A stretch of DNA of 45,552 nt from Solirubrobacter deserti (lineage in GTDB: Bacteria; Actinomycetota; Thermoleophilia; Solirubrobacterales; Solirubrobacteraceae), in the NCBI RefSeq assembly GCF_027587175.1, contig NZ_JAPCID010000054.1, positions 1 through 45,552 of the forward strand. Direction: 5' to 3'. Of this stretch, positions 31,046-39,178 are shown in pieces. The notes below the pieces were generated by a model. That model was not told where the DNA came from and searched no databases. It saw only the letters and a list, made by a program, of their open reading frames with translations. Numbering within the stretch: the stretch's first letter is position 1; every line of letters begins with the position of its first letter. Both the position numbers and the translations under genes were made by a program.

Positions 31046-32146
31046 GTGCGCGTGGCGTTCGTCTCCTCGCACGCACAACCGGGCGGATCGGAGCGCTACC
31101 TCGAGCTGTTGCTCGACGAGCTCGGGCCGCCGTGGATCGCGGAGGTCATCGTGCTGCAGGCCGGATGGCTGGTGGATCGGCTGCACTTGGCCGGGCACCC
31201 GGTGACCGTCGTGCCGGTGGGCCGGCGGCTCGACCTGCTCGCGGGCGCGGTGCGCCTACGCCGTGAGCTGCGGCGCGTCCGGCCCCGCGTCATCCACGCC
31301 AACGGCGTGAAGGCGGCCCTGGTCGCGGGGCTCGCGACGATCGGCTCGGGCGTGCCCGTCATCTGGGTCAAGCACGACTTCTCCGGCGGCCGCTGGCTCA
31401 CGAGCGTGGTCGCCGCGCTGTGCCGGCAGGTGGTCGGCGTGAGCGCGGCGGTGACGGCGGCCGTACCCGGCACCTTGTCCGCGCGCGTGCACGTGGTGCC
31501 CAACGGCACCCGGCCCGTGAGCGTGGACCGGGACGCGGCCCGGGCGGAGCTGCGCGAACGGCTCGGCCTCGACGCGTCGGCGCCGGTCGTGCTCTTCCTC
31601 GGCCGCTTGAGCCGCGTGAAGGGCGCGCGGCTGCTCGTCGCGGCCCTACCGCGGCTGCGCGAGCGCGTTCCCCGCGCGCACGTCGTGATCGCGGGGGAGC
31701 GCGACATCGCGGAGCCGGAGGTCGCGGACGAGCTGCCCGTGCAGGCAGCGGCGCTCGGCGTGCAGGGCGCGATCAGCTTCCTTCCTTGGCAGGACGATCC
31801 CGCCCGGCTGGTCGCCGGCGCGGACGTGGTCGCGGTCCCGAGCGGGCCGCACGTCCCGGGCGGATCTCCGGGGGAGGGCTTCGGCCTGGTGGCGATCGAG
31901 GCGATGGCGATCGGTACGCCCGTGGTGGCCGTGGCGGCGGGGGCGCTCCCGGAGGTCCTGGGCGACGCCGGGCGGCTCGTGGCGCCGACCGCCGAAGCGC
32001 TGGCCGACGGGCTCGCCGACGTGCTGCTCGACCCGGCTCTGCGCCAGCGCTTCGCGGCCGCCGGCCGGCGCCGCGTGGCCGAGTACTTCACGCTCGAGCG
32101 GATGAGCGCGCGGATGCAGGAGCGCTACCTCGAGGCCGCCCGGTGA
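31046..32146 (+). CDS. GT4-family glycosyltransferase
   Basis: A 366-residue GT-B enzyme. The N-terminal acceptor domain begins VRVAFVSSHAQPGGSERYLE with the glycine-rich loop. The linker VVPNGTRPVS leads to the donor domain with PVVLFLGRLSRVKGARLLV. The E-x7-E nucleotide-sugar motif is PGEGFGLVAIEAMAIGTPVV. The GTG at 31046 is the first conventional start; a CTG at 31028, overlapping the upstream stop, would add six residues. It overlaps the next gene by 4 bp. Retaining transfer from an NDP-sugar is expected for GT4. Confidence 0.9.
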   Translation: MRVAFVSSHAQPGGSERYLELLLDELGPPWIAEVIVLQAGWLVDRLHLAGHPVTVVPVGRRLDLLAGAVRLRRELRRVRPRVIHANGVKAALVAGLATIGSGVPVIWVKHDFSGGRWLTSVVAALCRQVVGVSAAVTAAVPGTLSARVHVVPNGTRPVSVDRDAARAELRERLGLDASAPVVLFLGRLSRVKGARLLVAALPRLRERVPRAHVVIAGERDIAEPEVADELPVQAAALGVQGAISFLPWQDDPARLVAGADVVAVPSGPHVPGGSPGEGFGLVAIEAMAIGTPVVAVAAGALPEVLGDAGRLVAPTAEALADGLADVLLDPALRQRFAAAGRRRVAEYFTLERMSARMQERYLEAAR

Positions 32147-33243
32147 AGCGCATCCTGCACGTGATGCAGCCGCGCGACGGAGGCGTTCCGCAGCTCGTGA
32201 CCAACGTGAGCGGCGAGCTCAGCGCGCGCGGCTGGGAGGTCGAGGTCGCCGCCTCCGAGGCGGCCGGGCCCGGCTCGCCGCAGCGCGCGCGGCTGGAGGC
32301 GGCGGGGGCGCGGGTGCACGCGCTGCCGATGACGGGGCTGATCGGCGCCGGGGACGCGCGGGCCGCCGCGCGCCTGCGCGAGTTGGACTCCGAACGGCGC
32401 TACGACGTCATCCACGCCCATTCGTCCAAGGCCGGCGCGCTGGTCCGCGCGGCGCTGCCGCGCCCCGAGCGGATCGTGTACACGCCGCACTGCTTCGCGT
32501 TCCTGGCCGGGTTCGGCGCCGCGCGCGCCGTCTACTGGGCGGCCGAACAGGCGCTGCTGCCGCGCACCGGCGCGGTGGTGGCCTGCTCGCGCTGGGAGGC
32601 GGCGAAGAGCCGGCGGAGCCTCCTCGGCGCGCACCGGAAGCTGCGCGTCGTCCAGAACGGCGTGCCGGCCTGCGAACGCGTCGAGCCGGACCCGCGCATC
32701 ACGGCCCTGCCACGCCCGATCATCGGCTTCCTGACGCGGTTGGACCCGCCGAAGGAGCCGGTGCGGCTGATCGAGGCGGCGGCGCTCGAGCGCTTTCCCG
32801 GCACGGTGGTGATCGTCGGCTCCGGGCAGTTCGAGGGCGAGGTGCGCGAGGCGATCGCGGCCCACGGCCTGGGCGAGCGGGTCCTGCATCTGCCCTTCAA
32901 CCCGCCCGTGGAGCGCTTCCTGCACGGCTTCGACATGCTCGTGCTGCCCTCGCGCTGGGAGTCGCTGCCGCTCGCCATCCTCGAGGCGATGGCGTGCGGG
33001 CTGCCGACGATCGCGAGCGATGTCGGAGGGATGGCCGAAGCGATCGAGGACGGGGTCACGGGCCGGCTCGTCCCGCCCGAGGACACGCCGGCGCTGGCGG
33101 CAGCGATCGGCGCGCTGGCTCAGGACCCTGAGGGACTGCGCGCGATGGGCGCGCGCGCCCGCGAGCGCTGGTCCGAGCGGTTCTCGCTCACGCGCATGGT
33201 GGACGAGCTCGAGGCGGTCTACGCCGAGCGCGCGGCGGCTTGA
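32143..33243 (+). CDS. GT4-family glycosyltransferase
   Basis: A 366-residue GT-B enzyme. VKRILHVMQPRDGGVPQLVT begins the acceptor domain. YDVIHAHSSKAGALVRAALP and IVYTPHCFAFLAGF resemble the polymer-initiating or chain-extending EpsD/EpsF group. In the donor domain, PIIGFLTRLDPPKEPVRLIE and the E-x7-E motif SRWESLPLAILEAMACGLPT are intact. GTG start overlapping the upstream stop (GTGA). The 3' end overlaps the convergent Wzy-like gene by 25 bp. Confidence 0.9.
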   Translation: MKRILHVMQPRDGGVPQLVTNVSGELSARGWEVEVAASEAAGPGSPQRARLEAAGARVHALPMTGLIGAGDARAAARLRELDSERRYDVIHAHSSKAGALVRAALPRPERIVYTPHCFAFLAGFGAARAVYWAAEQALLPRTGAVVACSRWEAAKSRRSLLGAHRKLRVVQNGVPACERVEPDPRITALPRPIIGFLTRLDPPKEPVRLIEAAALERFPGTVVIVGSGQFEGEVREAIAAHGLGERVLHLPFNPPVERFLHGFDMLVLPSRWESLPLAILEAMACGLPTIASDVGGMAEAIEDGVTGRLVPPEDTPALAAAIGALAQDPEGLRAMGARARERWSERFSLTRMVDELEAVYAERAAA

Positions 33244-34586
33244 GCGCGCGCGAGCGCGACGAGCATCCCGACCTGCGCGATGAACGTCGCCGCGACCACG
33301 TTGTTGCGCGGCGGGTAGTCGCCGAGGCTCGTCATCACGTTGCCCACCATCGATGCGGTGAGCGCGAGTCCGAGGGCGCCCGTGACCGGATCGCCGCGGG
33401 AGCGGACCGCGTGCACGACCAGGCGGCCGACGGCGGCGAGCAGCCAGAGCAGCGCGATCACGCCGGCCGTCCCGAGTTCCACGGCGAACGTCAACACGAC
33501 GTTGTGGGCGTGCTCGTACGGCTCGCCGCCCTCGTTCAGGCCCGCTGCCAGCGAGATCAGCCGGAAGTTGGCTGCGCCGACCCCGAGCCAGGGGTGCTCG
33601 CCGAAGATCTCGGGGACCGCGCTGTAGATCTTGAACCGCGGATCGTCCCGGACGACGCTGGTGCCCTGCCCGAGGGTGCCCAGCCGCGAGGTGACCACCT
33701 CCACCTGGTGCGATTGCGACAGCGCCCGAGCGTTCGCGAACGCGAACACGAGCAGCACCGCCAGCGCCACGAACGCCAGGCGGCGGAACGGCGGCGACAG
33801 CAGCAGCACCAGGAAGCTGAGCGCGGCGCCCAGCAGGCTCGTCCGCGACAGCGAGAGCATCAGCGCCACCACGCTCAACGCGGCCGCGACGGCCATCACG
33901 GCGCGCAACCACACCGAGCCGCGCGTGGCCAGCACCATGGCGATCGGCAGCGTCATCAGCAGGAAGAAGCCCAGCGTGTTCGGCTGGGAGAAGCTACCCT
34001 GCGCGCGGCCCGTGACGGCGGCGCCTCCCGCGACGAGCGTCTGCGTCCCGCTGGTGGCGATGGCGAGCAACGAGACGAGCCCGCCGGCCAGTGCCATGCA
34101 CACCAGCGTGCGTCGCACCTCGCTGAGCGGCAAGTTGGCCACCTGCGTGCCGATGACCGCGAATGCCGACCACATGACCAGGACCTTGGTCACGAGCGCG
34201 GTGTCGCGCGCGACCGTGAACCCGAGGGCGATCACGAGGCAGATGGCCGCCAGCGCGCGCAGCGCGGGTGGCACCGGAGGCACGCGGCCGAGGATCGACC
34301 ACTCGAGCAGCGTGGAGGCGGCGCTGAGCAGCAGCAACAGCTCCGTGACGCTGAACCCGGCGAGGCCGCCGGCCTTGAACGAGAAGAACTCGAGCGGCAC
34401 GGCCAGCAGCGCGAGCTGCAGGCCGAGCACGGGCCGGCGGACGACGGCGATCGCGACCACGATCGCGATCGGCACGACGAACCCGGCCGGCGCGCCGAGT
34501 TGCGCCATCACCATGACCTGGGCGGCCGCCACCATGCACGCGGCGGCGATGCCACCCAACAGCAGGACGCGCGAGCCGACGGTCAC
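33219..34586 (-). CDS. Wzy/O-antigen ligase-type membrane protein (first)
   Basis: A 455-residue protein with 10-12 membrane segments, starting VGSRVLLLGGIAAACMVAAA. The Wzy_C/WaaL loop is present: a periplasmic stretch with ILGEHP-like GEHPWLGVGAANFRLI and the His motif YEHAHNVVLTFAVELGTAG. This places it in the O-antigen ligase/polymerase family. With Wzx, Wzc and a glycosyl-1-phosphate transferase nearby it is probably the Wzy polymerase. A second family member at 39436 leaves open which one polymerises and which one ligates. Start at 34586 (non-ATG). Confidence 0.85.
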   Translation of the reverse strand: MTVGSRVLLLGGIAAACMVAAAQVMVMAQLGAPAGFVVPIAIVVAIAVVRRPVLGLQLALLAVPLEFFSFKAGGLAGFSVTELLLLLSAASTLLEWSILGRVPPVPPALRALAAICLVIALGFTVARDTALVTKVLVMWSAFAVIGTQVANLPLSEVRRTLVCMALAGGLVSLLAIATSGTQTLVAGGAAVTGRAQGSFSQPNTLGFFLLMTLPIAMVLATRGSVWLRAVMAVAAALSVVALMLSLSRTSLLGAALSFLVLLLSPPFRRLAFVALAVLLVFAFANARALSQSHQVEVVTSRLGTLGQGTSVVRDDPRFKIYSAVPEIFGEHPWLGVGAANFRLISLAAGLNEGGEPYEHAHNVVLTFAVELGTAGVIALLWLLAAVGRLVVHAVRSRGDPVTGALGLALTASMVGNVMTSLGDYPPRNNVVAATFIAQVGMLVALARAQAAARSA

Positions 34587-34611
34587 GCCGACGATGGTAG
34601 GCGGCGCGGCG

Positions 34612-36069
34612 TCAGCGAGCGGCGCGTCGGGCCGCCGCCTTGCGCTTGGCGGCGGCCTTGGCGCGGGCCTTGGCCTTCGCCTTGCGTGAGACCTTGGCGG
34701 AGACCTTGCTCGTGCTGGGCCGCTTGCGCGTCTTGGCCGGCGGGCGCTTGGTCACCGGCGGCGCGGCCGGGGCCGCGGGCGGTGCCGCCGGCGCGGGGGG
34801 CGCCGGGGTGACGGGCGCGATCGGCGCCACCGGCGCCACAGGCGCGACGGGGGCCACGGGCGCCGGGGTCACCGGGGCCGGAGGCTGCGGGGCGGGCGGG
34901 ACGGGGGTCAGCGGGCCCGACGGGACTTGCGGCTGTTGCGGGCCTTGAGCCGGCTGCTCTGGGCCATTCGTGAGGAACGCAGTGCCTTCTTGAAACGCCG
35001 CCCAAGCGGGCTTGGCCGACCCGTCCCACCGCCTCAGGCCATAGTTGGAGTGCAGGTCGTTGGCGTCGCGGCCGGTGTCCTGGAGGTTGAACCAGATCGT
35101 CGCGTCCACGAACGACCACTTGGCGATCTGCTGCACCTGCTGCTTGAGGTAGAGCGCCTGCGTCTCCTCGGTGACGCCGTTGTTCCAGCGGTCGCGGGAA
35201 CGGACCGTGGACGTGCTGTAGCCGGCCTCGGTCAGCCACAGCGGCTTGTCGTCGCCGTTGGCGAGCATCACGTCGCGCACGGCGGGCACGCCGCGGATGA
35301 ACGAGTAGCGGGGGTCCTGGCCGGCGACCGGGTCCAGCGGCGAGTAGTCCTCGCTGTACGGGTGGATCGAGAAGGCGTCGAAGAAGCCCTTGACGCCGAG
35401 CGTGTAGAGGCGTCCGGTGAATGCGTGGTCGGACCCGGACAGCGAACCGACGAGGACGGTCGTGCTCGGGTCGGCCGCCTTGACGGCGGGGTACGCCGCC
35501 TTGACCATCGCGGCGTACGCGGCGGCCTGATCGGGTGCCTTGAAGTAGGCGTCGTGGTTGGGCTCGTTCCAGATCTCCCACGCCTTGACGCGGCCCTTGT
35601 AGCGGGCGGCGACCTTGGCCAGGGCGCTGGCGTACGCGGCGGGGTCCTTCGGCGCGTACCGGTCCACACCACGCGACCACCACTCGCCCGCGCAGTTCTG
35701 CTTGATCGACTCGGGCGCGCTGGAAGCCCAGCACGGCGTCCACGTGAAGGTCAGCAGCAGCTTGATCCCGCGCGCCTCGGCCGCATCCACGAGCGCGTCC
35801 AGGCGGCCGAGGTGGTAGCCGCTGAACGAGCCCGGGCCGGTCTCCTGCAGCGAGGACCAGCCGACGTCGACGCGGGTGATCGTCGCGCCCGACGACTTGA
35901 CGAGATCGAGCTGACGCTTCATCTCGGCGGTGTCGACGTCGCCCCACAGCAGATGGGTCTGCATGCCGGCCAGCTTGGTGGCCGCCGCGGCCGTGCCCGG
36001 TATCAGGCACCAGGCCATGGCGGCGGCGAAGATCGCAGCAAGATATGCGCGGACTCGCGAACGTGGCAA
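34612..36069 (-). CDS. Secreted glycoside hydrolase (clan GH-A type), riboswitch-controlled
   Basis: A 485-residue secreted enzyme. Signal peptide 1-29 (VRAYLAAIFAAAMAWCLIPG). The TIM barrel (about 32-360) has the acid/base Glu in WEIWNEPNHD and the candidate nucleophile Glu in PLWLTEAGYS, the GH-A clan pair, as in GH39/GH5-like enzymes. A Pro/Ala/Val-rich linker (PVAPVAP repeats) and a 40-residue Lys/Arg/Ala tail follow, likely to stick to an anionic polymer. TTG start at 36069 with GGGAG 6 nt upstream. A c-di-GMP-I aptamer lies in the leader, so expression should follow the second messenger. Probably trims, processes or releases the exopolysaccharide. Confidence 0.85.
   Translation of the reverse strand: MPRSRVRAYLAAIFAAAMAWCLIPGTAAAATKLAGMQTHLLWGDVDTAEMKRQLDLVKSSGATITRVDVGWSSLQETGPGSFSGYHLGRLDALVDAAEARGIKLLLTFTWTPCWASSAPESIKQNCAGEWWSRGVDRYAPKDPAAYASALAKVAARYKGRVKAWEIWNEPNHDAYFKAPDQAAAYAAMVKAAYPAVKAADPSTTVLVGSLSGSDHAFTGRLYTLGVKGFFDAFSIHPYSEDYSPLDPVAGQDPRYSFIRGVPAVRDVMLANGDDKPLWLTEAGYSTSTVRSRDRWNNGVTEETQALYLKQQVQQIAKWSFVDATIWFNLQDTGRDANDLHSNYGLRRWDGSAKPAWAAFQEGTAFLTNGPEQPAQGPQQPQVPSGPLTPVPPAPQPPAPVTPAPVAPVAPVAPVAPIAPVTPAPPAPAAPPAAPAAPPVTKRPPAKTRKRPSTSKVSAKVSRKAKAKARAKAAAKRKAAARRAAR
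34797..34885 (-). repeat. Pro-Val-Ala codon repeat in glycosidase linker
   Basis: Degenerate 9-bp units (ggcgccacc-like on the plus strand) encode repeated P-V-A-P in the linker between the catalytic domain and the basic tail. Confidence 0.65.
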
Positions 36070-36072
36070 GAC

Positions 36073-36080
36073 GGACTCCC
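36073..36080 (-). promoter_or_regulatory. Sequestrable Shine-Dalgarno of the glycosidase gene
   Basis: RNA GGGAGTCC (36080-36073) contains the GGGAG ribosome binding site 6 nt before the TTG. It is perfectly complementary over 8 nt to GGACTCCC (36140-36133), the 5' strand of the second aptamer hairpin. Pairing of the two would hide the site when the aptamer is unfolded. Confidence 0.55.
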
Positions 36081-36105
36081 GTTGTGCGTCCGCCTACGCG
36101 ATGGT

Positions 36106-36186
36106 CCTGTTCGGCAGCCCGGCTGACTCCAGGGGAGTCCCGTGGCTTTGCGCCTCCGCCTCACGACGGATTTGCCCTTTCGCAGG
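36106..36186 (-). ncRNA. Cyclic di-GMP-I riboswitch (GEMM-I aptamer)
   Basis: On the minus strand the RNA carries the diagnostic blocks in order. GGGCAAA (36177-36171) comes first. A hairpin TCCGTC-GTGA-GGCGGA with a GNRA loop (36170-36155) follows, then GCGCAAAGCC (36153-36144). A second hairpin, GACTCC/GGAGTC (36139-36125), precedes AGCCGGGCTGCCG (36124-36112). CCTG (36186-36183) can pair with CAGG (36109-36106) to close the junction, and GGCA with TGCC inside it. It lies 37 nt upstream of the start codon of the secreted glycoside hydrolase, in the 201-bp gap after the Wzc-like gene. I matched it from memory of the family consensus. Confidence 0.9.
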
Positions 36187-36270
36187 CGGGAAGTTGGCTG
36201 ACGCTACCTGTTATCGGCAGGGTGCCCGCTGGACACAAGTCCAAACTTGCGATGAGCGTCCAGAATGTTC

Positions 36271-37713
36271 TCAGCGCGAACTTTCAACGGCCCGACCGAG
36301 GCGGCCGCCGTCCTGCTCGTCCGGTGGGCCCTCGGCGTAGTAGCCGGAGGTGAACGGGCCCGGATCGACGCGGTTGACGACGACGCCGAAGATCGTGGTG
36401 TGGGAGCGGCGCAGCTGATCCACGGCCTGCTCGGCGAGCCGGCGCTGGGTACGGCGCGCGTCCACGACGAGCACCACGCCCTCGGCCACCGAGGCGATCA
36501 GGGACGCGTCGGCGGCCACCGACAGCGGCGGCGTGTCGTACAGGACGAGTTCGTAGCGCTCGCGCGCGGCGCGGTCGAAGTCCCTCAGCGCCTCCGACCC
36601 GAGCAGCGCTGCCGGGTTCGGCGGCAGCGGCCCGGCGGGCAGCAGGTCCATGCTGGAGTCCGGGACGGCCCACACCGCCTCGCCCATCGTCGCCCCGTGG
36701 ACGAGCAGGCTCGAGAAGCCGCGTGGCGAGCTCGCGCCCGCGCCGCTCTTGTTGGCCAGGCTCGGCCGGCGCAGGTCCGCCTCGACCAGCAGCGTCGGCA
36801 GGTCCAGCTCGCCCGCGGCTCGGCCGACGCTGAGCGCGACGGTGGACTTGCCCTCCTGCTCGTCCGAGGACACGATGGCCACGGAGCGCGGCCGCCGGCC
36901 GACGTTCGCGAAGGTGAGGTTGGCGAGCACCAGCCGGAAGCCCTCGGCCGCCGCCCGCGCGTCGCGGCTCTGCAGGCGCTCGCCCTGCAGCAGACGCTCG
37001 ACGTCCGCGCCCGAGCCCTGCGGGATGCGCCCGATGATCGGCAGCCCGAGCACCTCGGTCATCGAGTCGGTGATCTCGAGGCGGCGGTCCAGCCGGTGCG
37101 CGGCCAGCGCGGCGCCGAGCGCGGCGAGCGCGGCCAGCAGCGCGCCGGCGGCGAGGTACAGCCGCGGTCGCGGCCGGACGGGGTTCGTCGGCAGCGTCGC
37201 GGGTTCGGCGACGCTCGCCTTGCCGGTCGAGGCGCCGGCCGACGCGAGCTGGCGCGTGCGCTCCTGGAAGACCTGCGTGTAGGTGTTGGCGAGCAACTGC
37301 GCTGCCTCGGGCGTCTCCGCCTCGGTGGTGACGCGCAGCAGCTGCGAATCGGTCACGGCCTCGACCGTCAGCGCGTTGGCCGGCTCGGGCGGCATGCCGG
37401 GCCGGTTCCCCACGCGCCGTTTGACCTCGTCCGCGAGGTTCTGCGTCTGCAGCAGCTGCTCGAACGTGGTCAGCAACGCCGACGAGATCTGCGTCTGCTC
37501 GAAGTCCGAGGACACCGGACGGTCCGGCGTGACGAGCATGTAGCCCGTCGCCTCGTAGGCCGGCGTCAGCGAGGCCGTCAGCGCCGCCACGGAGGCCAGC
37601 ACGGCGACGAACGTGCTCAGCGCGATCCAGCGCCGCCGCCAGACGACGCCCACGATGTCATCAGCCGCCGCGCGGCGGCCGGGAGCGGCGCTCAGGCTGT
37701 CAGCGGTCGCCAC
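36271..37713 (-). CDS. Wzc-like polysaccharide co-polymerase / BY-kinase
   Basis: A 480-residue fusion of a Wzz chain-length domain and a bacterial tyrosine kinase. The first membrane segment is near residues 28-48 (RWIALSTFVAVLASVAALTA), the extracytoplasmic domain holds YEATGYMLVTPD, and the second membrane segment follows NPVRPRPRLYLAAGALLAAL. The kinase has Walker A SSDEQEGKST, Walker A' LLVEADLRRPSL and Walker B LVLYDTPPLS. The C-terminal tail has only two tyrosines (GYYAEG), few for a BY-kinase. It should set polymer length and export with the Wzy protein and be reset by the CpsB-type phosphatase. Its start overlaps the upstream transferase gene by 14 bp. Confidence 0.9.
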   Translation of the reverse strand: MATADSLSAAPGRRAAADDIVGVVWRRRWIALSTFVAVLASVAALTASLTPAYEATGYMLVTPDRPVSSDFEQTQISSALLTTFEQLLQTQNLADEVKRRVGNRPGMPPEPANALTVEAVTDSQLLRVTTEAETPEAAQLLANTYTQVFQERTRQLASAGASTGKASVAEPATLPTNPVRPRPRLYLAAGALLAALAALGAALAAHRLDRRLEITDSMTEVLGLPIIGRIPQGSGADVERLLQGERLQSRDARAAAEGFRLVLANLTFANVGRRPRSVAIVSSDEQEGKSTVALSVGRAAGELDLPTLLVEADLRRPSLANKSGAGASSPRGFSSLLVHGATMGEAVWAVPDSSMDLLPAGPLPPNPAALLGSEALRDFDRAARERYELVLYDTPPLSVAADASLIASVAEGVVLVVDARRTQRRLAEQAVDQLRRSHTTIFGVVVNRVDPGPFTSGYYAEGPPDEQDGGRLGRAVESSR

Positions 37714-39178
37714 GGGCGAAGAGCAAGGCCGGAATCGTCTTGGCGACGATCTTCAGATCGAGGAGGGGACTCCAATTCTCGATGTAGAAATTGTCCCACT
37801 CGACCCGGTCTTGCAAAGAGGTGTCCCCGCGGAGCCCGTTCACCTGCGCCCACCCGGTCAGCCCCGATTTGACCCGGTGGCGCTCAGGGTAGCGATAAAT
37901 GGCGTCTTCGAACTGCTCGACGTAGTGCGTGATCTCCGGGCGCGGCCCGACCAGTGACATGTCGCCGCGGGCGACGTTCCACAGCTGCGGCAGTTCGTCC
38001 AGCGAGGTGCGGCGCAGCCACGCGCCCACGCGGGTGCGTCGGTCCCCATCGGCCGCCGGCTCAGCGGACATCCCGATCGCGGCCATCGCCCACGCCGCGT
38101 TGCTCTCGCCCGCCGGGCCGGGCTCGCCCGCCATGGTCCGGAACTTGAGCATGTCGAAGGCGCGCCCGTCCAGCCCGACGCGGCGCTGACGGAACAGCAC
38201 CGGCCCGGGAGAGCTGAGCTTGACGGCGATCGCGATCGCGGCCACCACCGGCGTCAGGACGAGCAGCACGAGCGACGCGATCACGCGGTCGAGCGCGTAC
38301 TTGACGGTGAACTGCCACGAGTGCGGGTCGGACGGGTCCAGCGAGACGATCGGCAGCGCGCCCAGGTGCTCGACGCGGGTGCGCCGGCCCTCGACCTCGA
38401 ACAGCCGCGGCACCACGTTGACCCCGATGCCCAGCGCCCAGCAGCGCCGGACGACGTCCAGCACGACCGACGGGGGCGCGGTGGAGAAGGCGACGATGAC
38501 GTGCTCCACGTCGTGCTCGGCGACGACCTCCTCGAGATCCCACGAGGCGCCCAGCACCGGCAGCGTGAGCCCGCTGTCACCGTCGAGCGGCTCCTTGTCG
38601 AGGAAACCGATCGGCTGGAAGCCGAACTGCGGCTCGTTGAGCAGGCGCTGGGCCACGGTCTGACCGACCTGGCCGGCGCCGACGATCAGCGTCGCGTGCG
38701 CGGTCCGCGTCGTCGCGCGGCGGGTGACCGCCTCGACGCCCGCGACTCCGAGCCGACCCGTACCGACCAGCGTCGCCATCAGCAGCCACAGGCGCGCGGC
38801 GGAGTCGCCGGCGCCGACGTGGCCCGCCCCGAGCTCGAAGCACGCGGCGGAGATCGCGACGAGCGCCGGGATCGTGATCAGCTTGCGGCGCTCGGCGCCG
38901 GCGGGCAGCGTGGCGCGTGGGCGGTAACAACCGACCGCGGCGTAGGCGGCCATCGTGGCGAGGATCACGAGCGCGACGGTGCCCAGGTCGAGCGGCTGTG
39001 CGCTCCACTCGTGGGCGCCGACGGCGGCGAGCACAAAGGCGATCGCGTCCACGCTCAGCAGAGCGAGCACGCGCGCACGGTTGCCGCGGCGCGCCGCGGT
39101 GCTGGTGCGTCGGCGGCCAGGAGCGTGCAGCTCCAGCGTCCCCGAAAGCATTTCCCTTGTAGCCGTCTGATCGCTCAC
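37700..39178 (-). CDS. Polyprenyl-phosphate glycosyl-1-phosphate transferase (WbaP/WcaJ-like)
   Basis: A 492-residue initiating enzyme. The N-terminal third has four to five membrane segments. A Rossmann-like domain follows (TLIVGAGQVGQTVAQRLLNE). The catalytic C-terminal bacterial sugar transferase domain has the reentrant helix region ALDRVIASLVLLVLTPVVAA, SSPGPVLFRQRRVGLDGRAF, KFRTM, SLDELPQLWNV, the D-E pair, DMSLVGPRPE and SGLTGWAQVNG. About 35 residues between KFRTM and RTRVGAWLRR are Ala/Gly-rich and unusual. It transfers the first sugar-1-phosphate to undecaprenyl phosphate. GTG start at 39178; an ATG at 39151 is possible. It heads the operon with the Wzc-like kinase. Confidence 0.92.
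   Translation of the reverse strand: MSDQTATREMLSGTLELHAPGRRRTSTAARRGNRARVLALLSVDAIAFVLAAVGAHEWSAQPLDLGTVALVILATMAAYAAVGCYRPRATLPAGAERRKLITIPALVAISAACFELGAGHVGAGDSAARLWLLMATLVGTGRLGVAGVEAVTRRATTRTAHATLIVGAGQVGQTVAQRLLNEPQFGFQPIGFLDKEPLDGDSGLTLPVLGASWDLEEVVAEHDVEHVIVAFSTAPPSVVLDVVRRCWALGIGVNVVPRLFEVEGRRTRVEHLGALPIVSLDPSDPHSWQFTVKYALDRVIASLVLLVLTPVVAAIAIAVKLSSPGPVLFRQRRVGLDGRAFDMLKFRTMAGEPGPAGESNAAWAMAAIGMSAEPAADGDRRTRVGAWLRRTSLDELPQLWNVARGDMSLVGPRPEITHYVEQFEDAIYRYPERHRVKSGLTGWAQVNGLRGDTSLQDRVEWDNFYIENWSPLLDLKIVAKTIPALLFARGDR

What the first reader, a model, noticed from the sequence alone, without database searches (positions are those of the whole stretch)
36073..36186. c-di-GMP-I riboswitch controls a secreted glycoside hydrolase inside an exopolysaccharide locus
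All conserved blocks of the GEMM-I aptamer are visible on the minus strand, in order and correctly spaced, directly before a GH-A-type secreted hydrolase with a polycation tail. c-di-GMP is the general matrix switch of bacteria. Control of a polymer-processing enzyme, separately from the polymerisation genes, would let the cell remodel or release its matrix on the same signal. I recall such riboswitches before actinobacterial cell-wall hydrolases, but not before this gene type.
Basis: partly seen in the sequence, partly recalled or inferred. Interest (0 to 1): 0.75.

Follow-up and report, generated by a model that had tools for sequence, protein, structure and literature searches.

The report
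c-di-GMP riboswitch before PslG-like hydrolase
In the soil bacterium Solirubrobacter, an RNA switch for the signal molecule cyclic di-GMP sits in front of an enzyme that probably trims the cell's own sugar coat, behind a promoter of a type that the same signal is known to control in relatives, so one signal may be read twice on one message.

Summary
The riboswitch is real: window 36186-36110 (-) scores 66.9 bits to RF01051 (cut-off 35). RF03167 (c-di-GMP-I-GGC) is passed too (62.3, cut-off 59), but the window has A where RF03167's consensus has G, so I call it canonical c-di-GMP-I. The gene behind it (36069-34612) is a secreted homologue of PslG, the endoglycosidase of the Pseudomonas psl operon, with both catalytic Glu and a Lys/Arg-rich tail. 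The genome has six such aptamers. In 36 of 61 genomes of the order searched I read all 97 aptamers listed; they lead pilins, CAP proteins, subtilases, hydrolases and others. New here: 53 of 97 (26 of 29 in the genus) follow a WhiG/FliA-type promoter, against 1-3 of 97 in controls. The window has a perfect GCCGATAA -10 but no TAAA -35. Seven of seven genus genomes encode RsiG, the c-di-GMP-armed anti-sigma of WhiG. So c-di-GMP probably acts twice on these transcripts: at the sigma factor and in the leader. Ligand binding and switch polarity are untested.

The parts
37700..39178 (-). EPS polyprenyl glycosylphosphotransferase (initiating sugar transferase), upstream in the locus
   Evidence: TIGR03025 386 bits, over its cut-off; PF02397 208 bits
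36271..37713 (-). Wzz / BY-kinase (chain length and tyrosine autokinase)
   Evidence: TIGR01007 127.7 bits, over its cut-off; PF02706 28.8 bits, cut-off 25.5
36230..36243 (-). palindrome TGGAC-TTGT-GTCCA, lying over the -35 position; possible operator of an unknown regulator
   Evidence: perfect in G001, partly decayed in G003
36211..36218 (-). GCCGATAA, perfect -10 of a WhiG/FliA-type promoter; no TAAA at -35 (TTGT)
36106..36186 (-). c-di-GMP-I aptamer with closing P1 strand CAGG (36109-36106); A at the Vc2 A47 position
   Evidence: RF01051 66.9 bits; RF03167 62.3 bits
36070..36105 (-). leader between aptamer and start, with Shine-Dalgarno GGGAG at 36080-36076; expression platform not resolved
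34612..36069 (-). secreted PslG-like GH39/GH-A hydrolase, 485 aa, TTG start; E169 and E281 catalytic by homology; Pro/Ala linker and Lys/Arg tail
   Evidence: phmmer to PslG E 4.2e-21; Pfam Cellulase 1.1e-14 and GH39 7.6e-9
33219..34586 (-). Wzy_C polymerase/ligase, likely co-transcribed with the hydrolase
   Evidence: PF04932 70.4 bits; same order in G001 and G003; no terminator-like site at the junction

Best explanation
A canonical c-di-GMP-I riboswitch leads a two-gene unit (PslG-like secreted endoglycosidase, then a Wzy_C polymerase/ligase) in the middle of an exopolysaccharide locus of Solirubrobacter. The leader starts just downstream of a promoter with a WhiG/FliA-type -10. c-di-GMP therefore probably acts at two levels: it arms RsiG to hold the sigma factor WhiG (promoter off at high signal), and it binds the aptamer and changes how well the leader passes on to the hydrolase and polymerase. 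The enzyme then trims or releases its own polymer at the cell surface, its cationic tail perhaps holding it to an acidic polymer. Shown by sequence: aptamer, genes, order, conservation, promoter motif, presence of WhiG and RsiG. Inferred: ligand binding, which sigma reads this promoter, switch polarity, co-transcription, substrate, role of the tail.
For: Aptamer 66.9 bits to RF01051, cut-off 35. Promoter plus leader 88-92% identical between the three species, against 82-85% for the hydrolase core DNA. Order BYK-aptamer-GH-Wzy in G000, G001, G003. PslG homology E 4.2e-21; E169 and E281 fall on chain residues 139 and 250 of the printed alignment (my count), both 26 below E165 and E276, which PMC9075953 names as PslG's key residues (passages). 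WhiG/FliA-type promoter (at least 9 of 12 matches) 5-80 nt before 53 of 97 aptamers; 3 of 97 on the opposite strand, 1 of 97 with windows reversed; 26 of 29 in the genus against 2.8% of shuffles and 1.5% of 1941 control windows. In 8 of 18 genomes tested only one FliA/WhiG sigma is found at E <= 1e-48; there 7 of 7 pilin-led aptamers carry the motif, which points to WhiG rather than FliA. RsiG (PF22802) in 7 of 7 genus genomes and 55 of 61 relatives, 0 of 14 controls. The WhiG-class sigma of G000 lies beside a tyrosine recombinase gene. 51 GGDEF matches in G000, 50 over the cut-off, a few of them pieces of one domain. Rubrobacter WhiG-RsiG controls type IV pili, and Thermoleophilia have single-motif RsiG (PMC8325347, abstract and passages).
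Against: The window's own promoter scores only 9 of 12: perfect -10, but TTGT for TAAA; G003 scores 8. Outside the genus 41 of 68 aptamers lack the motif. A FliA-class sigma in a flagellar neighbourhood (FlhB-type, FlaG, weak FliK) is also present in G000 and could read the same -10. Six of 61 relatives gave no RsiG hit, among them G043, a single-sigma genome with a motif-bearing pilin aptamer. RsiG of G000 has His where the published motif has Gln (by eye). The BY-kinase end is nearly as conserved as the leader (84-89%) and the 39 nt after the aptamer are 82-95%, so conservation alone is a modest argument. Folding shows little change of Shine-Dalgarno accessibility between free and aptamer-forced leader, so no expression platform was identified. 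No wet data.
Confidence: 0.6

Rival explanations
1. Single-layer control: an ordinary c-di-GMP-I riboswitch controls the hydrolase-wzy unit, and the promoter is a flagellar FliA-type or other promoter with no c-di-GMP input.
For: G000 also has a FliA-class sigma (214.8 bits) beside flagellar genes; WhiG and the flagellar sigmas share promoter specificity (PMC8325347, passage); the window's -35 is poor; one aptamer of G031 leads a flagellin.
Against: Eight of 18 genomes tested show only the WhiG-class sigma and 7 of 7 pilin-led aptamers there carry the motif; RsiG is present in 7 of 7 genus genomes.
Confidence: 0.25
2. The aptamer belongs to the c-di-GMP-I-GGC variant and senses something other than, or binds differently from, canonical c-di-GMP-I.
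For: RF03167 is the best cmscan hit, 62.3 bits over a cut-off of 59.
Against: The RF03167 consensus reads GACGCGAAGCC; the window reads GGCGCAAAGCC, a mismatch at just that G. Of 97 aptamers 94 read CGCAAA there, 2 CGCAGA and 1 CGCAAC; none reads CGCGAA.
Confidence: 0.05
3. The element is a decayed or silent aptamer; the hydrolase is expressed by read-through from the BY-kinase gene.
For: No expression platform or terminator-like site found.
Against: Aptamer pairs intact in the window; promoter and leader at least as conserved as the flanking coding DNA in two of three species pairs or more.
Confidence: 0.08

Closest known systems
c-di-GMP-I (GEMM-I, RF01051) riboswitches, e.g. Vibrio Vc1 before gbpA (PMC4744006, passages read)
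   Same: Same aptamer class and contact residues; leads a secreted protein acting on a polysaccharide; in Vc1 too the gbpA promoter is separately (negatively) regulated by c-di-GMP, and no terminator or anti-SD was apparent
   Different: Here the led unit is an EPS-locus hydrolase plus Wzy_C, and the promoter is of the WhiG/FliA type with RsiG in the genome
PslG of the Pseudomonas aeruginosa psl operon
   Same: Sequence homology, catalytic Glu pair, location inside a polysaccharide biosynthesis cluster
   Different: Solirubrobacter enzyme has a Pro/Ala linker and Lys/Arg tail and its own riboswitch; pslG is one of 15 co-transcribed psl genes (PMC9075953, passages)
RsiG-WhiG sigma/anti-sigma switch of Rubrobacter and Streptomyces (PMC8325347, abstract and passages)
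   Same: Same promoter consensus, small RsiG, type IV pilus genes among the targets
   Different: Here the promoters are followed by a c-di-GMP aptamer; the paper's main text does not hold the word riboswitch

Membership tests
c-di-GMP-I riboswitch (RF01051) | Covariance model score over the curated cut-off | tested here: met
   66.9 bits, cut-off 35
c-di-GMP-I riboswitch (RF01051) | P2 with GNRA loop and P3 under a P1, supported by compensatory changes | tested here: met
   P1-P3 pairs in the window; P2 pairs standard in 59-61 of 61 with 3-5 types; P3 covariation and the tetraloop receptor contact not tested
c-di-GMP-I riboswitch (RF01051) | Ligand contacts equivalent to Vc2 G20, A47, C92 (named in PMC4744006) | tested here: met
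   GGCAAA and CGCAAAG blocks present; positions matched to Vc2 by eye and recall, the C92 equivalent by eye only
c-di-GMP-I riboswitch (RF01051) | Binds c-di-GMP and switches expression | not testable with these tools
   needs in-line probing and reporters
c-di-GMP-I-GGC variant (RF03167) | Model score over cut-off | tested here: met
   62.3 bits, cut-off 59
c-di-GMP-I-GGC variant (RF03167) | G at the position of Vc2 A47 (my reading of the consensus; the source paper is not held) | tested here: not met
   window has A
PslG-like GH39 / clan GH-A | Homology over the catalytic barrel | tested here: met
   phmmer 4.2e-21 over residues 33-386; PF01229 35.3 bits, cut-off 26, and PF00150 55.1 bits, cut-off 23.5. 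Formal CAZy family not tested
PslG-like GH39 / clan GH-A | Two catalytic glutamates | tested here: met
   E169 and E281 invariant in 12 aligned homologues and at the places of PslG E165 and E276
WhiG/RsiG regulon | -35 TAAA and -10 GCCGATAA, at most two mismatches (criterion of PMC8325347) | tested here: not met
   window: 9 of 12, three mismatches, all in the -35; 16 of 29 genus aptamers meet it
WhiG/RsiG regulon | WhiG and RsiG encoded in the genome | tested here: met

The most novel reading that the evidence does not exclude
In Solirubrobacter and relatives a surface-life regulon (type IV pilin, CAP proteins, subtilase, PslG-like hydrolase with Wzy_C) is wired so that c-di-GMP is read twice in series on the same transcript: by RsiG, which withholds the sigma factor WhiG, and by an aptamer in the leader. 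If the two act in opposite directions the genes would be expressed only in a band of intermediate c-di-GMP; if in the same direction the response would be steeper.
Probability: 0.5. Interest if true: 0.75.

Novelty: new variant of a known kind. Interest (0 to 1): 0.55.

Why it matters
It offers a genus-wide set of natural transcripts in which a protein sensor and an RNA sensor of one second messenger appear to be stacked, so that the purpose of double sensing can be tested directly. It also suggests that a PslG-type hydrolase and a Wzy_C polymerase/ligase are switched together by c-di-GMP, relevant to why EPS clusters carry a hydrolase, a question that PMC9075953 calls elusive (abstract passage).

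Tried and rejected
Anti-Shine-Dalgarno pairing between the P3 loop (GACUCCCC) and GGGAGUCC: perfect in the window, partly kept in G001, lost in G003 (by eye), so rejected as a conserved platform. Folding with and without the aptamer forced gave nearly the same SD accessibility; the free ensemble, in which the 5' leader CCGCCU pairs with the P2 arm, is 12.5-14.4 kcal/mol better without ligand or tertiary terms; polarity left open. No terminator-like site in 35900-36330 or 34450-34750. RF03167 membership rejected on the A47 letter. Other homologues of the hydrolase's catalytic part in the genus (at most 43% identical over the matched part) are not directly led by an aptamer, but one of them lies 3.6-4.4 kb downstream of the CAP-leading aptamer in four genomes (see noticed). 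L091 and L092, distant hydrolase-like genes, had no Pfam match, L091 no PDB match, so I do not count them as hydrolases. A first Pfam test of a pilin (L068) used a frame off by one base and found nothing; the right frame gives N_methyl. Structure prediction was not run.

Papers: searches listed, by titles and abstract starts, no paper on a c-di-GMP riboswitch before a PslG-like gene or stacked with WhiG. Eight papers hold riboswitch, WhiG and c-di-GMP together and four hold PslG, c-di-GMP and riboswitch; of these twelve I saw passages of one (PMC11139211), which names both kinds of receptor apart. Seen as passages: PMC12452182, PMC8325347 (also abstract), PMC11139211, PMC11218506, PMC4744006, PMC11124144, PMC9075953; abstract only: PMC11912335. 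No paper was read whole.

Full report
Observation. The aptamer is there. (whole window, gathering thresholds) gives three RNA matches: SRP RNA, a tRNA and c-di-GMP-I-GGC at 36184-36109 (-), 62.3 bits. As printed, the RF03167 consensus has G where the window has A, at what I take to be Vc2 A47. Ligand contacts G20, A47 and C92 are named in PMC4744006 (passages). The paper that I recall as defining the GGC variant is not held, so what 'GGC' stands for is my inference. I treat the element as canonical c-di-GMP-I.

The gene. The 485-aa protein at 36069-34612 (-) has a signal peptide-like start (judged by eye), a GH-A barrel and a Pro/Ala linker ending in a Lys/Arg tail that is also present in the G001 and G003 orthologues. 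Its best solved relatives are PslG (5bx9, 4zn2; E 4.2e-21). E169 and E281 are invariant in 12 homologues and align with the PslG glutamates. PslG is a retaining endo-beta-glucosidase of the psl cluster (PMC11912335, abstract). The substrate of the Solirubrobacter enzyme is unknown.

The unit. By codon-position GC and profiles the minus-strand genes are: glycosylphosphotransferase 39178-37700, Wzz/BY-kinase 37713-36271, leader, hydrolase 36069-34612, Wzy_C 34586-33219. Two group-1 glycosyltransferase genes on the plus strand (about 31070-32146 and 32143-33243) converge on the end of Wzy_C. The gap from hydrolase to Wzy_C is 25 nt, without a terminator-like site. BY-kinase, hydrolase and Wzy_C lie in the same order around orthologous aptamers in G001 (L043) and G003 (L052). 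L140, from Solirubrobacter sp. CPCC 204708, is 100% identical in the hydrolase, and L141 is S. phytolaccae, 79%, which names the genus. G002, G004 and G005 have no match above 42% identity.

The set. Six aptamers in G000; 36 of 61 genomes, the own one included, have at least one (stricter filters). I read all 97 rows. Led genes in the genus (29 aptamers): type IV pilin 6, CAP 11, S8 subtilase 6, GHL15 hydrolase 2 (L049, L062), PslG-like 3, and one unassigned (L069). Profile hits were obtained for 2 of the 6 pilins, 6 of the 11 CAP, 2 of the 6 subtilases and both GHL15; the others rest on BLAST clustering. Outside the genus, GHL15 follows in L070 and L077 and a flagellin in L149. 27 of 97 lead a pilin by a sequence-motif test.

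The promoter layer. Upstream of many aptamers stands TAAA-N14-16-GCCGATAA, the consensus that PMC8325347 used for Rubrobacter WhiG (spacer range mine). Best match of at least 9 of 12 in the window 5-80 nt upstream: 53 of 97; opposite strand 3 of 97; reversed windows 1 of 97. Genus: 26 of 29, against 2.8% of dinucleotide shuffles and 1.5% of 1941 control windows from the same loci, which are mostly coding. Others: 27 of 68, so the link is far from universal; of the non-pilin aptamers outside the genus only 11 of 47 have it, of the pilin-led ones in all genomes 22 of 27. Orthologues within a genus are not independent; by gene family, the pilin, both CAP groups, subtilase, GHL15 and PslG sets have it in at least two members, and L069 does not. 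The window itself has the -10 perfectly but not the -35 (TTGT), and G003 only 8 of 12.

The sensors. G000 has two sigma factors over the FliA_WhiG cut-off: C70 (287 bits), beside a tyrosine recombinase gene, and C46 (215 bits), beside FlhB-type and FlaG genes and a weak FliK match. That whiG lies near such a recombinase gene in Streptomyces is recalled. Among 18 genomes tested with E <= 1e-48, eight show only the first class (two of them under 90% complete), and there 7 of 7 pilin-led aptamers and 11 of 20 aptamers in all carry the motif. RsiG is found once in each of 7 genus genomes and in 55 of 61 relatives; the six without a hit include G043, one of those eight, and G031. The G000 RsiG (L130 1722-1462, 86 aa, 74.6 bits to PF22802) keeps E, S, R and D of the published motif, with His for Gln (by eye).

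Mechanism. Shown: a canonical aptamer, intact pairs, conservation, position between a WhiG/FliA-type -10 and a start codon, co-directional hydrolase and Wzy_C. Inferred: c-di-GMP binding; WhiG as reader; repression through RsiG at high c-di-GMP; leader effect of unknown sign. V. cholerae gbpA is a precedent in which the riboswitch raises expression with c-di-GMP while the promoter is negatively regulated by it (PMC4744006, passages). If the same holds here the unit would peak at intermediate c-di-GMP.

Novelty. Aptamer and enzyme are members of known families; the combination with an EPS hydrolase-Wzy unit and with a WhiG-type promoter in an RsiG-bearing genome was not found in the searches listed, judged by listings. 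PMC8325347 has no occurrence of 'riboswitch' in its main text. I rate it a new variant of a known kind.

Noticed in passing
window 36243-36230 (-); also upstream of aptamers in L043, L048, L063, L066, L096, L097 and others: Palindrome TGGAC-N4-GTCCA, at least 8 of 10 matched, upstream of 11 of 29 genus aptamers and 9 of 32 others, against about 2.5% of control windows. Only three perfect sites in the genome, no more than the backward control pattern (4). Possibly the operator of an unknown regulator; its distance to the -10 varies.
   Followed up: partly
L049, L062, L070, L077: c-di-GMP-I aptamers directly before GHL15 (PF14885) predicted hydrolases, a second hydrolase family with this leader.
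   Followed up: partly
G000:C85:203992, G001:C2:407183, G003:C80:38129, G004:C68:95958: A distant homologue (30-33%) of the window hydrolase lies 3.6-4.4 kb downstream, same strand, of the CAP-leading aptamer in four genus genomes.
   Followed up: no
G000:C76:4054-9578 and the matching places in G001-G005 and G061: The rsiG gene lies within about 3-8 kb of weak homologues of the window hydrolase in 7 of 7 genus genomes.
   Followed up: no
L149 (G031), L158 (G012): Aptamer before a flagellin gene; weak aptamer (35.9 bits) before a ClpC-like frame, by eye, near an RsiG-like fragment with a stop.
   Followed up: partly
L069, G000:C37:94637-96073: Aptamer lies shortly downstream of a GGDEF match and before a protein without a Pfam match, without the WhiG-type promoter.
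   Followed up: no
L101 (G023): Two aptamers about 880 nt apart, each before a near-identical pilin frame.
   Followed up: no
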